A stretch of 64,000 nucleotides of DNA from contig NZ_CP132339.1 of the NCBI RefSeq assembly GCF_030944405.1, positions 4,588,001-4,652,000 on the forward strand, in the 5' to 3' direction. Below are positions 2,888 to 7,808 of this stretch, in pieces. Both the position numbers and the translations under genes were made by a program. The DNA is from Janthinobacterium sp. J1-1 (GTDB taxonomy: Bacteria > Pseudomonadota > Gammaproteobacteria > Burkholderiales > Burkholderiaceae_D). The notes under the pieces were generated by a model. It ran no database searches, was not told where the DNA came from, and saw nothing but the letters and a program-made list of their open reading frames with translations. The first letter of the stretch is position 1, and each line of letters begins with the position of its first letter.

Positions 2888-3201
2888 ATTCCTCAGTACA
2901 AGTTTGTCATATCCGACTGTCCGTCTTCGGCCTATTGTGTTGAAATACGCGGGTACGTTGACGTTTAGATAGAAATCATACCTGTAAAAAAAATACGATT
3001 CAGAAATGGTTGCCTTGTACCACAGAACTTTCCTACATGCCAGCAGCCTGTATCCCTATGCACAGACTGGGCCATGGCGGTGACAATGTTTTCTCCGACG
3101 GCGCCCTCCATTGCACGCCAAGGGACGGCGCATCGGAAGCAAGCAGGCCAGGCAGCCAGAGGCTGTCATGCATATGTATCCCACTTACAAAGGAAACTAT
3201 C
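2888..3201. other. Intergenic region, AT-rich
   Basis: About 314 nt between the divergent genes at 2887 and 3202. The first half is AT-rich and includes a run of eight A residues near 2985. A ribosome-binding AAAGGA sits just before the ATG at 3202. No convincing gene is present; the long upstream extension of the 3202 frame has no appropriate start signal. It presumably carries both divergent promoters. Confidence 0.5.
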
Positions 3202-3564
3202 ATGAACTCGAACAAATCGAACCAGACCAGCAAATCGTCGTCGGACAAGCAAGCCGATACCATGCAAAAAGGTAATCAACAGTCCGGCAATCAACAGTCA
3301 GGTAGCCAACAAGGCGCCGGCAAGCAAGGCGGCACCCATGAGCAGCACGTGGAAGCGGGCCGTCAAAGCCACAAGAACGATGCCAATCGCGGTGGCGCCT
3401 CGCAACAATCGGGCAATGCACAGGGCAACCAGCAGTCCGACCGCTCGCAAGGCAATCAGCAGTCGGCGTCCGGCTCGGGTTCCAGCTCCGGCTCGCGCGG
3501 CGGCACGCATGAGCAGCACGTGGAAGCCGGCCGTCAAAGCCACAAGAATGACGCCAAGCGCTAA
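3202..3564 (+). CDS. KGG/Con-10-like stress-induced repeat protein
   Basis: A 120-aa, extremely hydrophilic, probably disordered protein rich in Gln, Ser, Gly and Asn with no hydrophobic core. Two near-identical units, GGTHEQHVEAGRQSHKND at about residues 43-60 and again at about 100-117, resemble the glycine-rich acidophilic repeat (KGG, PF10685) found in stress-induced proteins and fungal Con-10. They are separated by a Q/S/G linker. The start at 3202 is preceded by AAAGGA at good spacing. The gene is monocistronic, ending in a strong hairpin terminator at 3604-3640. A role in desiccation or general stress is inferred from family only. Confidence 0.75.
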   Translation: MNSNKSNQTSKSSSDKQADTMQKGNQQSGNQQSGSQQGAGKQGGTHEQHVEAGRQSHKNDANRGGASQQSGNAQGNQQSDRSQGNQQSASGSGSSSGSRGGTHEQHVEAGRQSHKNDAKR

Positions 3565-3963: not shown

Positions 3964-3992
3964 AAAAAAGGCCGATCCGATCGGCCTTTCTT
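3964..3992. terminator. Bidirectional rho-independent terminator
   Basis: Inverted repeat AAAGGCCGAT-CCG-ATCGGCCTTT at 3967-3989, flanked by A and T tracts. It is placed between the plus-strand DUF3297 gene and the end of the minus-strand DUF2063 gene, so it serves both convergent units. Confidence 0.9.
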
Positions 3993-4010: not shown

Positions 4011-4859
4011 TCAATCCTCGCCGCAAGTGATACCGGCTGCTGCGGCAAGCGGCAGCCACAACATGGCGTCGGCCAGCACCTGGTCGACCGGCAAGGCGCA
4101 CTGACGGGCTGCATGCAAAGCGCAGGCCTGCAGGCTGCCGGCATCGTCGCTTGCCGCCTGCAGCAAATGAAATTGCCACGGCAGCAAGCTGTGCATGCCG
4201 AGCCGATAATGCAAGCGCGCGATGGCGACATGGCCGGGCCCCGGTGCGGGCTGGGGCGGCATGGCGTCATCGGGGGCGGCCTGTGCTTCGCGCCAGAATG
4301 CCTGCAGGGAAAACGACAGGGACAGCAGGCGCGTGCACGGCGCCAGCCGTATCCGCGTCTCGCCGCCGGTGAGCCAGGCCAGGTCCGGCATGGACACCGC
4401 CGCCCGCTGCTCCAGTCCCCGCGCCCTGCCCGCCTCGCTGCGCGCGCGTTCCAGCCGGGCCAGCTCAACGGGAAAGCGCAGCTGTTCGCCACCGCCCGCC
4501 GGCTGGCTGGCCGCAAGGAAATCGGCAAAGCCGCCCCCCAGGTCATACAAGGTGGGCGAGCGCGAGGGGTGGCGCCAGACATAGGCGCGGGCGAAAAAGT
4601 CGAACAGTTCCGCGCCCATGGTCTTGCGCAGCACGGGGAAATCGACCTGCAGGCATTCGAGCAGGCGCTGCACATAGCCGTCGGCGTAGATATGCAGGCG
4701 CGCCTGGCGGCCGGCCGCGCTCTTAAACACCTCGTCCCGGCTCAGGCCATGGTGATGCTGTGCCAGTTCCATGCCGCGCTGCGCGCCGCCGGGCGCCGTC
4801 ATGGCCGTCAAAAACCAGACCTGCAGCCGCGCCAGCGATTGTTGCTCGGATTCATGCAT
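4011..4859 (-). CDS. DUF2063 family MNIO partner protein (BufC/HvfC-like)
   Basis: A 282-aa protein from the ATG at 4857-4859 ([20 protein letters not shown]). The N-terminal half carries the DUF2063 'putative DNA-binding' pattern: [20 protein letters not shown] near residue 70, then [20 protein letters not shown] and [14 protein letters not shown]. In MNIO systems such as bufferin (BufC) and HvfC, and by analogy TglI/ChrI-type partners, this protein binds the precursor and presents it to the MNIO enzyme rather than binding DNA. It overlaps the 3' end of the MNIO gene by 8 nt, so the pair is translationally coupled. An upstream ATG at 4865 is an alternative start. It is the last gene of the unit, before the terminator at 3964-3992. 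Confidence 0.88.
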
Positions 4860-5781
4860 GGACATCTCCCAGGTGAAAGCTGAGCGGGCTGGACACGGCG
4901 CCGCGCGCAGGCACCAACGGTGCTTCGTCCGAAAACTCGCCCCGTTCGGCCGCGCGCGCCTTGGCCAGTTCCGCCAGCAGCTGCGGATACGGCGGGATAT
5001 TCGCATCCCATTCCAGCAGCGCCGACACGCCGCCCGTCAGCCGCTGCGCCAGCGCATACAGCCGCCAGACAGCAGCCGGCACGGGGGCGTCATGCGTGTC
5101 GATCAGCACCTCGCCGCAATCGGTGGGGCCAGCCAGGTGGAGTTGCACGATATGCCGGTGCGGCAATTGGCGGATATAGTGCGCCGCGTCGTAGCCGTGG
5201 TTGTGCGCGCTGACGTACACATTGTTCACGTCCAGCAGCAGGCCGCAGCCCGTGTCTTCGGCCAGGCGGCCCAGGAATTCCCATTCCGGCATGCTGGAGC
5301 TGGCGAACTCGACATAGGTGCTGGGGTTTTCCAGGATCAGCGGACGGCCGAGGAAATCCTGCACCTGGCGCACGCGCGCGGCCACATGCCGAAAACTGGC
5401 CTCGTCCAGCGGCAGCGGCAGCAGGTCGTGGCTGTTGACGGAGGCGGCACCGGTCCAGCACAGATGGTCAGAAATCCAGGCCGGCCGCACCTCCTCGGCC
5501 AGCTGGCGCAGCTTGGCCAGGTAGCGCAGGTCGAGCGGATCGCTGCTGCCGATCGACAGCGACACGCCATGCATGACGATCGGCACTTGCGCCGCCACTT
5601 GCTCCAATACATGGCGGCCATAGCCATGGTTGTCGATAAAGTTCTCGCTGATGATCTCGAACCAGTCCACCTGCGGTCCGTGTTCCAGGATGTGCTGGTA
5701 GTGTTGCGGGCGCAGCCCGACGCCCAGGCCCAGATGCGGCAGGCCCAGGCGGGGAGCCGCCAGTTTATTGGCGGCCATCAT
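4852..5781 (-). CDS. MNIO family (DUF692) multinuclear non-heme iron oxidative enzyme
   Basis: A 309-aa TIM-barrel enzyme of the MNIO family (formerly DUF692; MbnB, TglH, BufB, HvfB). Expected metal ligands are visible in order: His71 ([10 protein letters not shown]), Asp105-His106 (WISDHLCW), Glu151-Asn152 ([10 protein letters not shown]), Asp184-x-Asn-Asn ([16 protein letters not shown]), His215 ([10 protein letters not shown]), Asp228 and His230 (IDTHDAPVP), and Glu257 (LLEWDANIP). Known members oxidatively rearrange cysteine (and in some cases Asn or Asp) residues in peptide substrates. The ATG overlaps the stop of the upstream ferritin-like gene as TGATG at 5779-5783, which implies near-stoichiometric co-translation. 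No small bufferin or HvfA gene is adjacent. Confidence 0.92.
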
Positions 5782-7808
5782 CAGGTCGACGGTGGCAGGG
5801 CCATGCGCAAATCGGTCGGCGCCGGCTTGGCTGCGGGGGTTGCGCCGCGCGCCGCCATCACCTTGACATACGCTTCCCAGGCCTTGTCATACACGCTTTC
5901 GCCAAGGGCGAAGCTGACGGTCTGGCCCAGGGATTCCGACTTGTGGTCCGGGCCCGGGCCGAAGTTGTACAGGGTCATGGTGCCTGGCGTGGCGTTGGGG
6001 TACAGCTGGGAGGCCGAAATCGGCACGGCACAGCCGCCGAAGGTGGCGCATTTGTTGTCGCTTGGTGCGCTGTAGACGTCGTCCGCCGGCACCGGTGGCG
6101 GCGGTTTGGGCGCGCCGCACAGATTGCCCGCCACCTTGGTTACCTTGGCCGAATGGCCACAGGACGAGCCGCCGCACTGGCCGCCACCCGTATCGAGCTG
6201 GGCAAAGCCGCAGCCGCCCTGGGCATGGCAGCCGTTCGAGCCGCGACAGGTATGGTAGACGGCCAGCGCCGCGCAGGTGGCTTCGGCCTCGCCTTCCAGG
6301 TGCATGCCCTGGCAGGCGTGGTACAGGATGTCCTTGTCGCGCACCGGCACGCCCGTTGCCAGGTTGGGCGCCTGGCCCAGCACGGCCCAGCACAGCGCCA
6401 TGCGGTCACCGGCGCCGACCATCGACGGATACGGAAACGCCGTGCTCTGGTCTTGCCAGTAGGTATCGAGCACCGAGGTGATGCCGTAGATGGCGCCGTT
6501 GGCGACCGTGCTCAGCATCGTCAGGGTGTCGGACTTGTCTTTCAAGCGGTTCAGCGCGCCCGCCACATCGTCGGGGCCGGGAATATTCTGCGGCGCCGTG
6601 GCCTGATTATAGTGCTCGTTGGTCAGCATGGCCGCGTCCCAGACATGGCCTTCCGCATGCCATTGCGCCCAGGTCTTCACCGGCAGCATGTGCTTCACAT
6701 GGCCGAAGCGCTCGTAGTGATCATATTTGGCGCTGTCGTGGCGGGCCGCCGCGTCGCGCGACTCGGCGTCGCCGCCGTCGTTGCTGTAGGAGGGATAATC
6801 GACCTTCAGCGCCGCATCGTCCTCGCGGTAATCGGGTTGCACCGCCATCAGCATGGCGCCCACGTTGCGGCGGTAGCGCTTGATGGCGCCATCGCTGCCC
6901 TCGCCCTGGTCGGTAATCGCGGCCATCATGTCGATCGCCTTGTTGAACGAGGTGATATTGCCGCCATCCTGGACATTCGGCCCGAAGCTGGTGTCGAAGC
7001 GGGGGAACTCGGCCTTTTCATGGCCCTTGACGGTGGTGTTGAACATGTCCTGCTGCACCGAGTTATTGACGAACAGCTTCTGCCACAGGGTTTCACCATC
7101 GGTGTACTCGATGCTGATATAGGCCGCATAGCATTCGTACATATAGCCGATGGTGCCGAACAGGGGCAGGTCGTGCACATGCTTGCCCGGCGTCCAGCCG
7201 TCCAGCGGCACTTGCGGGAAATACTTGGTGTGATCAAGCTTGTCGAAGGCGCGCAGCTGCTCCCGCGCCTGCTTTTCCGGCTGCTCGATGGCGCGGAACA
7301 GCTCGCACTGGTTCTCGTTCAGCTCTTCCAGGTTGACCCGCACCTTGCTGTAGCCCGAGGTGTCCTTCAGGTCGACGATATGCGGAATCGTGGTCAGATC
7401 TGGTCCGTAGCAGGTCCAGCCATGCTGCTGGTTCTGCAGTTCCGCACCCGTGAAGCACGGCGCGGCGCCGATCGCGGTGGCGATATTCGACGCCATCTGC
7501 AGGTGCAGCATTTCCTGGATAAACACGCTGAAGATGATGTTGAAGGCCTTTTGCTCTTTCGACTCGGGCCGCGCGGTGGTGCTCATGCCCGGCCATTGCC
7601 GGCCTTCGTAGTAGCGCACGCCCTTGGAATTGATCTGGTGCGTGCCGTAAATCGAATACATGGTGGCCATGTACAGCGGGATGGTAAACAGCTCCACGCT
7701 GACGGCCGCCTGCGCAATGGCGCGCACGGCCGCCGTATCGGTGGCCAACTGGTCGAGCGGACGGTGCTTGATCGGCGACTGGGTACTGCCTGCTTCGGGC
7801 ATTTTCAT
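5781..7808 (-). CDS. VioB-like ferritin-fold protein with Cys-rich C-terminal module
   Basis: A 675-aa protein starting at the ATG of [10 protein letters not shown] (7806-7808), preceded by GGAGAG. Residues about 25-290 look like the ferritin-like domain (PF12902) of VioB/RebD-type proteins: helix [16 protein letters not shown] (Glu39) and helix [16 protein letters not shown] with the ExxH pair Glu99/His102. A middle region (about 370-480) has further helices. Residues 499-593 contain ten cysteines (499, 512, 521, 527, 533, 545, 550, 564, 587, 593), including [13 protein letters not shown] and [10 protein letters not shown], which recall the GKCG repeats of HvfA/bufferin precursors. The last 80 residues are Cys-free. 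Four further cysteines (118, 133, 168, 226) lie in the ferritin part and Cys473 just before the cluster. No signal peptide is evident. It is the first gene of the MNIO unit and the likely substrate; enzymatic role unknown. Confidence 0.85.

What the first reader, a model, noticed from the sequence alone, without database searches (positions are those of the whole stretch)
4011..7808. Three-gene ferritin-like / MNIO / DUF2063 unit with no small precursor peptide
Seen: a 675-aa ferritin-fold protein, an MNIO enzyme with its full ligand set, and a DUF2063 partner in one strand run, with TGATG and 8-nt overlaps and a shared terminator. Known: MNIO-DUF2063 pairs modify cysteines of short precursors (bufferins, HvfA; 3-thiaglutamate and methanobactin systems use related enzymes). 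Inference: the large protein itself is the substrate, yielding a metalloprotein or iron-handling complex with oxidised cysteine groups, not a released peptide. This may be an undescribed branch of MNIO biology.
Basis: partly seen in the sequence, partly recalled or inferred. Interest (0 to 1): 0.88.

Follow-up and report, generated by a model that had tools for sequence, protein, structure and literature searches.

The report
Ferritin-like protein with modifiable cysteine tail
A bacterial gene trio pairs an enzyme family that chemically rewires cysteines with a large ferritin-like protein that appears to carry the enzyme's target as a built-in tail, instead of making a separate small peptide as related systems do.

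Summary
Confirmed and widened. The window (a Janthinobacterium-like genome) encodes a 675-aa PF12902 ferritin-like protein, a BufB-family MNIO and a DUF2063 partner in one overlapping run. The trio recurs: 60 of 61 related loci, from alpha-, beta- and gammaproteobacteria and one cyanobacterial MAG, have both enzymes downstream; the miss ends at a contig edge. Among 24 PF12902 loci from two genome samples, the 5 next to an MNIO are the only 5 with a conserved Cys module. Two held-out genomes fit. The module is separable: two genomes of one genus encode it as its own ~155-aa gene between the ferritin-like gene and the MNIO, and a Symploca MAG lacks the ferritin-like domain but keeps the C-terminal part, with one Cys motif repeated six times, plus both enzymes. 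These MNIOs form one clade beside BufA2 maturases. Best reading: a bufferin-like MNIO substrate fused to a di-metal ferritin-like carrier, probably cytosolic. Thiooxazole chemistry, copper binding and role are inference.

The parts
5781..7808 (-). Ferritin-like protein with C-terminal Cys module (675 aa); proposed MNIO substrate
6885..7712 (-). PF12902 ferritin-like match, residues 33-308; E39, E99xxH102, E175, E303 (and H364 beyond the match) are conserved di-metal-type residues
   Evidence: Pfam; conservation; fold match 3hl1
6030..6314 (-). Cys module core, residues 499-593; C499, C512, C521, C527, C533, C587, C593 conserved in 59 of 59 rows; mostly low-confidence in the model
5784..6008 (-). 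C-terminal region, residues 601-675: predicted beta-hairpin and helix, conserved end PPST in type A; possible recognition element (inference)
4852..5781 (-). MNIO (PF05114), NCBIfam BufB 'bufferin maturase' over cut-off (357.7 vs 310 bits)
4011..4859 (-). DUF2063 partner protein; model matches the MNIO partner TglI (8hci, 8hi7) and NGO1945 (3dee)
3967..3989 (.). Inverted repeat with flanking A and T runs, likely bidirectional terminator shared with the convergent DUF3297 gene
   Evidence: read directly; not listed by scan; DUF3297

Best explanation
The operon makes a post-translationally modified protein. The BufB-type MNIO, with the DUF2063-RRE partner, oxidises several cysteines in the flexible C-terminal module (C521, C527, C533, C587, C593 are the main candidates) of the ferritin-like protein encoded just upstream. 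By family precedent each modified Cys becomes a 5-thiooxazole (-4 Da, absorbance near 302-305 nm). The module descends from, or is related to, a small bufferin-type precursor that became fused behind a PF12902 di-metal ferritin-like domain and has no evident export signal, so the product is probably a cytosolic metalloprotein that binds Cu(I) or another soft metal next to a di-metal site. Shown: gene order, recurrence, exclusive co-occurrence of module and MNIO in the samples, split and ferritin-less module genes, a single MNIO clade. Inferred: that modification happens, its chemistry, the metal bound and the role. I put the substrate step at about 0.85, thiooxazole at about 0.65, Cu(I)/soft-metal binding as main role at about 0.5.
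For: Recurrence in 60 of 61 loci. PF12902 survey: 5 of 24 over-cut-off loci have an MNIO, all 5 have the module, 0 of 19 others have either (Fisher p 2.4e-5). Held-out: 2 of 2 strong new module hits in 370 class genomes are ferritin-module + MNIO + DUF2063; the one weak hit is a bufferin-type precursor before MNIO + DUF2063. Split gene in G099 and G528, one genus; ferritin-less gene in L064 with six GCAVPI repeats. The same 20 of 40 genus genomes hold gene 1 and an MNIO of 80% identity or more; none of the other 20 has an MNIO above 50%. MNIO clade 100/99, nested with BufA2-linked MNIOs 97/93 (those precursors are over the BufA2 cut-off). Partner model matches TglI and NGO1945. Cys conserved although the segment is variable and modelled as flexible. 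Module types A and B homologous (hhalign 98.0%), B to BufA2 core 91%.
Against: No mass spectrum or expression evidence. Type A module against BufA2 alone is weak (14%), and P0001 hits no NCBIfam family. The BufA2 profile also scores a DUF2282 precursor at 26 bits, more than the split module's 22, so that score says bufferin-like rather than BufA2. C527 is not strictly invariant (L158), C512 is missing in Nostoc, and Symploca has none of the Cys before the GCAVPI motif. PME-type 1 partners are reported to go with signal-peptide precursors (PMC12452194), which this is not. Symploca is a MAG; its short gene could be an assembly product. No conserved neighbour gene or promoter points to copper.
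Confidence: 0.66

Rival explanations
1. The modified Cys are a protein-derived cofactor: the thiooxazole-bound metal works with the di-metal site of the ferritin-like domain, making an oxidase or oxygenase rather than a metal buffer. The substrate step is the same as in the best explanation; only the role differs.
For: E39, E99, H102, E175, H364 identical in 27 of 27 sampled rows and E303 in 26 of 27, MNIO-less PF12902 proteins included; body modelled with confidence; in most loci found, module and body are fused.
Against: Two genomes keep them as separate genes and the Symploca gene has no ferritin-like domain, so the module can exist without being attached to that domain.
Confidence: 0.22
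2. The ferritin-like protein is a tailoring enzyme or chaperone, and the MNIO modifies a different small precursor encoded elsewhere.
For: Bufferin genes without a neighbouring MNIO are reported in print (PMC12452194, passages). The genome has a DUF2282 bufferin precursor.
Against: That bufferin has its own MNIO-DUF2063 fusion gene; MNIOs of similar identity and long open frames, probably the same gene, remain in genus genomes without the trio. The module profile finds one place in this genome (only the best first-look candidates were scored, 8 and 22 of 47). No small Cys ORF is conserved around 59 loci beyond 3 related genera. The split-module gene sits where bufferin precursors sit.
Confidence: 0.07
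3. The Cys tail is an unmodified structural metal site (zinc or iron-sulfur) and the MNIO neighbours it for an unrelated reason.
For: Some MNIO-less PF12902 proteins also end in Cys-rich tails that look CDGSH-like (sequence seen in L105, L115; label recalled).
Against: Exclusive pairing of this module with MNIO and DUF2063 in the samples; segment modelled as flexible rather than a compact site; Cx5C pattern like bufferins.
Confidence: 0.05

Closest known systems
Bufferin / captophorin operons (BufA-BufB-BufC; PMC12452194, PMC13097082)
   Same: BufB-family MNIO followed by DUF2063 partner, precursor gene directly upstream, Cx5C-rich precursor segment; MNIO nearest to BufA2-linked maturases
   Different: Precursor segment is the tail of a 675-aa ferritin-like protein, no evident signal peptide, no bufferin family hit; carries a folded di-metal-type domain and a conserved C-terminal domain
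TIGR04222 membrane proteins linked to MNIO (PMC12452194)
   Same: Large protein with C-proximal Cys-rich segment next to an MNIO; proposed protein substrate; one is in this genome (L003)
   Different: Membrane protein, PME-type 2 or no partner, more distant MNIO (168 bits to BufB); P0001 has no TIGR04222 hit
Buf_EGKCG/EF-hand fusions (PMC12452194)
   Same: MNIO-type Cys segment fused to a metal-binding domain
   Different: EF-hand, transmembrane helix, EGKCG motif; here PF12902 and Cx5C / GGCAVPI motifs
CC_0557, PDB 3hl1, Caulobacter ferritin-like protein
   Different: The match ends at residue 484; the 317-residue chain covers no part of the Cys module
TglI / NGO1945 MNIO partner proteins (8hci, 8hi7, 3dee)
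   Same: Best fold matches of the DUF2063 protein (E 5.3e-6, 7.6e-6, 6.6e-5)
   Different: 15% and 11% identity; partners of other precursors

Membership tests
Bufferin/captophorin (MNIO-DUF2063 thiooxazole RiPP) | MNIO of the BufB family | tested here: met
   NF050167 357.7 bits vs cut-off 310
Bufferin/captophorin (MNIO-DUF2063 thiooxazole RiPP) | PME-type 1 partner: DUF2063 domain | tested here: met
   PF09836 69 bits vs 27.2
Bufferin/captophorin (MNIO-DUF2063 thiooxazole RiPP) | Partner has the DUF2063 plus RRE two-domain fold | tested here: met
   Model pLDDT 90.8; Foldseek best matches TglI 8hci E 5.3e-6 and NGO1945 3dee E 6.6e-5, prob 1.00. PF22106 below cut-off, sequence search found no relative
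Bufferin/captophorin (MNIO-DUF2063 thiooxazole RiPP) | Precursor gene directly before the MNIO gene | tested here: met
   Gene 1 overlaps MNIO start; split module likewise precedes it
Bufferin/captophorin (MNIO-DUF2063 thiooxazole RiPP) | Precursor matches a bufferin profile at curated cut-off | tested here: not met
   P0001 no NCBIfam hit to E 1; split module 22 bits vs 60
Bufferin/captophorin (MNIO-DUF2063 thiooxazole RiPP) | N-terminal Sec signal peptide | tested here: inconclusive
   Crude hydropathy only, with ranges close to those of real signal peptides; residues 18-50 are a long helix of the modelled body
Bufferin/captophorin (MNIO-DUF2063 thiooxazole RiPP) | 5-thiooxazole on Cys, copper binding | not testable with these tools
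   Needs co-expression, mass spectrometry, metal assays
PF12902 ferritin-like | Profile and fold | tested here: met
PF12902 ferritin-like | Conserved Glu/His residues of the family | tested here: met
   E39, E99, H102, E175, H364 in 27 of 27, E303 in 26 of 27 sampled rows; geometry and metal not tested
TIGR04222 MNIO-linked protein | TIGR04222 profile | tested here: not met
   No hit to E 1

The most novel reading that the evidence does not exclude
A dedicated MNIO branch builds thiooxazole metal sites inside a folded di-metal ferritin-like protein, giving a two-centre cytosolic metalloenzyme whose protein-derived cofactor evolved by fusing a bufferin precursor to an oxidase-like domain.
Probability: 0.22. 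Interest if true: 0.92.

Novelty: new variant of a known kind. Interest (0 to 1): 0.74.

Why it matters
MNIO enzymes are known mainly for making small modified peptides. Here a well-supported MNIO clade is tied to one large folded protein family, with natural split, fused and stripped-down versions that point to the segment modified. If confirmed, it shows MNIO chemistry used to build a metalloprotein, extends bufferin-type chemistry to a probably cytosolic protein with a DUF2063 partner, and gives a defined candidate segment to test by mass spectrometry.

Tried and rejected
Hidden small precursor near the trio: 876 small Cys-containing ORFs (20-160 aa, at least 2 Cys) around 59 loci gave no family shared by more than 3 related genera; those few were not examined further. 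Conserved accessory genes: flank ORFs of 90 aa or more in 27 representative loci gave no cluster of more than 3 loci, all close relatives, so no function by neighbourhood. Defence role: no PADLOC hit. Promoter: one sigma-70-like match, expected by chance; an upstream alignment shows conserved patches within the genus, not interpreted. Sequence search of P0003 against solved structures found nothing meaningful. Two small module-only proteins from metagenomes (P0126, P0133) start with Met and look standalone, but their N-termini do not align with the full-length protein beyond shuffled controls and I could not see their neighbours; other short hits may be fragments. In the tree I labelled L119 and L120 BufA1 without seeing a DUF2282 precursor; the A+B clade does not depend on that. 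Type A alone is not firmly one clade (74/80). One search found 11 PF12902 places in 9 of 43 genomes of one family; of the 9 new ones I examined 4 (L146 positive; L147, L138, L139 negative, the last two only to about 1.5 kb), leaving 5 unexamined. One search found PF12902 in 2 of 74 genomes, both already counted.
Full report
Observation. Pfam assigns PF12902, PF05114 and PF09836, all over cut-off. NCBIfam places the MNIO in the BufB 'bufferin maturase' family (357.7 bits, cut-off 310) and finds nothing for the ferritin-like protein.

The genome. G000 has three MNIO genes: this one; a DUF2282 bufferin precursor (PF10048) in front of a natural MNIO-DUF2063 fusion; and a TIGR04222 protein in front of a more distant MNIO. 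The other two each have their own substrate candidate, so this MNIO has no evident claim on them.

Recurrence. A scan of one-per-species genomes gave 61 loci (its six peptide patterns came from several parts of the protein, so it favours close relatives). In 60 of 61 both an MNIO and a DUF2063 gene follow on the same strand; the exception, L033, ends at its contig edge. Hosts include Janthinobacterium, Massilia, Undibacterium, Chromobacterium, Ralstonia, Dyella, Caulobacter, Sphingomonas, Vibrio, Marinobacterium and one cyanobacterial MAG. A protein search listed full-length relatives also in Nostoc, Sorangium and Myxococcus, without context (724 hits, 120 shown). Inside the genus, gene 1 is in 20 of 40 genomes, and an MNIO of 80% identity or more is in exactly those 20; no other MNIO in the genus exceeds 50%. 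The genes are linked and the genomes related, so this shows a dedicated pair, not 20 independent events.

Co-occurrence in samples not chosen for the trio. PF12902 was searched in 150 order-level and 397 phylum-level genomes. That gave 24 distinct loci over the cut-off; two rows below it (G130, G197) were dropped. Neighbourhoods of about 5 kb, shorter at contig ends, were read. Five have an MNIO and a DUF2063 gene: the window, G350, G122, G243 and G099:C12. All five have the Cys module, four fused and one as the next gene. None of the other 19 has an MNIO, and the module profile run on those loci (plus the dropped G197) found nothing at E 10 (Fisher p 2.4e-5). The module profile (A3) over the same genomes found it only in those five, though only the best first-look candidates of each genome were scored. 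A3 contains rows from four of these loci, so its presence there is by construction; its absence elsewhere is not. As a held-out test, 370 class-level genomes gave, besides the window's genome, two strong new hits (G749, G738), both ferritin-like-plus-module followed by MNIO and DUF2063, and one weak hit (G695, E 5.9e-4), a 93-aa bufferin-type precursor (33.7 bits to BufA2, cut-off 60) also followed by MNIO and DUF2063, with no ferritin-like gene in the stretch read.

The module is separable. In G099 and G528, which belong to one genus, the ferritin-like gene ends before it and the module is its own gene of 157 and 155 aa between that gene and the MNIO. In the Symploca MAG (L064) the gene before the MNIO encodes only 164 aa: its first 30 residues match the N-terminus of the full-length Nostoc protein (score 94; best of 200 shuffles 46), the ferritin-like domain and the earlier Cys are gone, and the last motif is repeated six times as GCAVPI before the conserved C-terminal domain; those six are its only Cys. 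Both enzymes remain open. This is the strongest hint that the tail, not the ferritin-like body, is what the MNIO needs; being a MAG with near-exact repeats, it needs checking.

Relation to bufferins. In a 35-row tree all trio MNIOs included, fused, split and Symploca, form one clade (100/99) within a larger one that also holds MNIOs linked to BufA2 precursors (97/93); DUF2282-linked ones fall outside. The BufA2 labels rest on precursors over that family's cut-off. Profile comparison links the two module types (98.0%) and type B to the BufA2 core (91%), but type A to BufA2 only at 14%. The BufA2 profile also gives the DUF2282 precursor 26 bits, so its 22 bits on the split module mean bufferin-like, no more. 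Of the five nearest non-trio MNIO loci that I read in the genus (45-50% identity), three sit behind BufA2 precursors; in the other two I found no precursor.

Mechanism proposed. Shown by sequence: a dedicated MNIO and DUF2063 pair next to one Cys module that may be fused, split or alone. From the literature: BufB-type and HvfB-type MNIOs with DUF2063 partners install 5-thiooxazoles on Cys with loss of 4 H, and such products bind copper (PMC13097082, abstract, passages, sections 12 and 13; PMC13419390, passages; PMC12538549, passages). Inferred: the same chemistry on this tail, in the cytosol because no signal peptide is evident, giving a protein that binds Cu(I) or another soft metal near a di-metal domain. 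Whether it is a metal buffer or an enzyme with a protein-derived cofactor cannot be told here.

What is in print. Of PMC12452194 I read the abstract, sections 13, 15, 17, 18 and 21 and passages: it states that MNIOs may modify real proteins, ties PME-type 1 partners to signal-peptide precursors, and its main text holds no 'ferritin'. Searches of the open library list no MNIO paper reporting a ferritin-like substrate; this is from listings and passages, and subscription papers and supplements were not open. PMC12710340 and PMC8224329 were seen as passages only. A study of lodA/goxA genes (PMC4417212, passages) notes PF12902 genes near lodA in fungi, a different context.

Verdict. Real, recurrent and more informative than the finding claimed. 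The family is best called a new variant of the bufferin-type MNIO system. It works like one, but it is not filed as a bufferin because the precursor fails the bufferin profiles at cut-off.

Noticed in passing
L094:4990-6738 (G000:C1 about 6,314,000-6,315,700): The same genome has a natural single-gene fusion of MNIO and DUF2063 (582 aa) behind a DUF2282 bufferin precursor.
   Followed up: partly
L003:579-2325: A TIGR04222 protein ending in a Gly/Ser/Cys-rich tail, next to a divergent MNIO gene, in the same genome.
   Followed up: partly
L064:4494-4988: Cyanobacterial MAG mini-protein with six in-frame GCAVPI repeats that lacks the ferritin-like domain but keeps both enzymes downstream.
   Followed up: partly
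L105 and L115 (MNIO-less PF12902 loci): PF12902 proteins with a different Cys-rich tail that looks CDGSH/ferredoxin-like (label recalled), a second case of a redox-type tail on this domain.
   Followed up: no
window 3190-3564: Low-complexity small protein with two copies of GGTHEQHVEAGRQSHKNDA; no Pfam hit.
   Followed up: no
L052:4959-7277: Some Sphingomonas relatives carry long variable linkers with CGTP-type repeats inside the Cys module, possibly extra modification sites.
   Followed up: no
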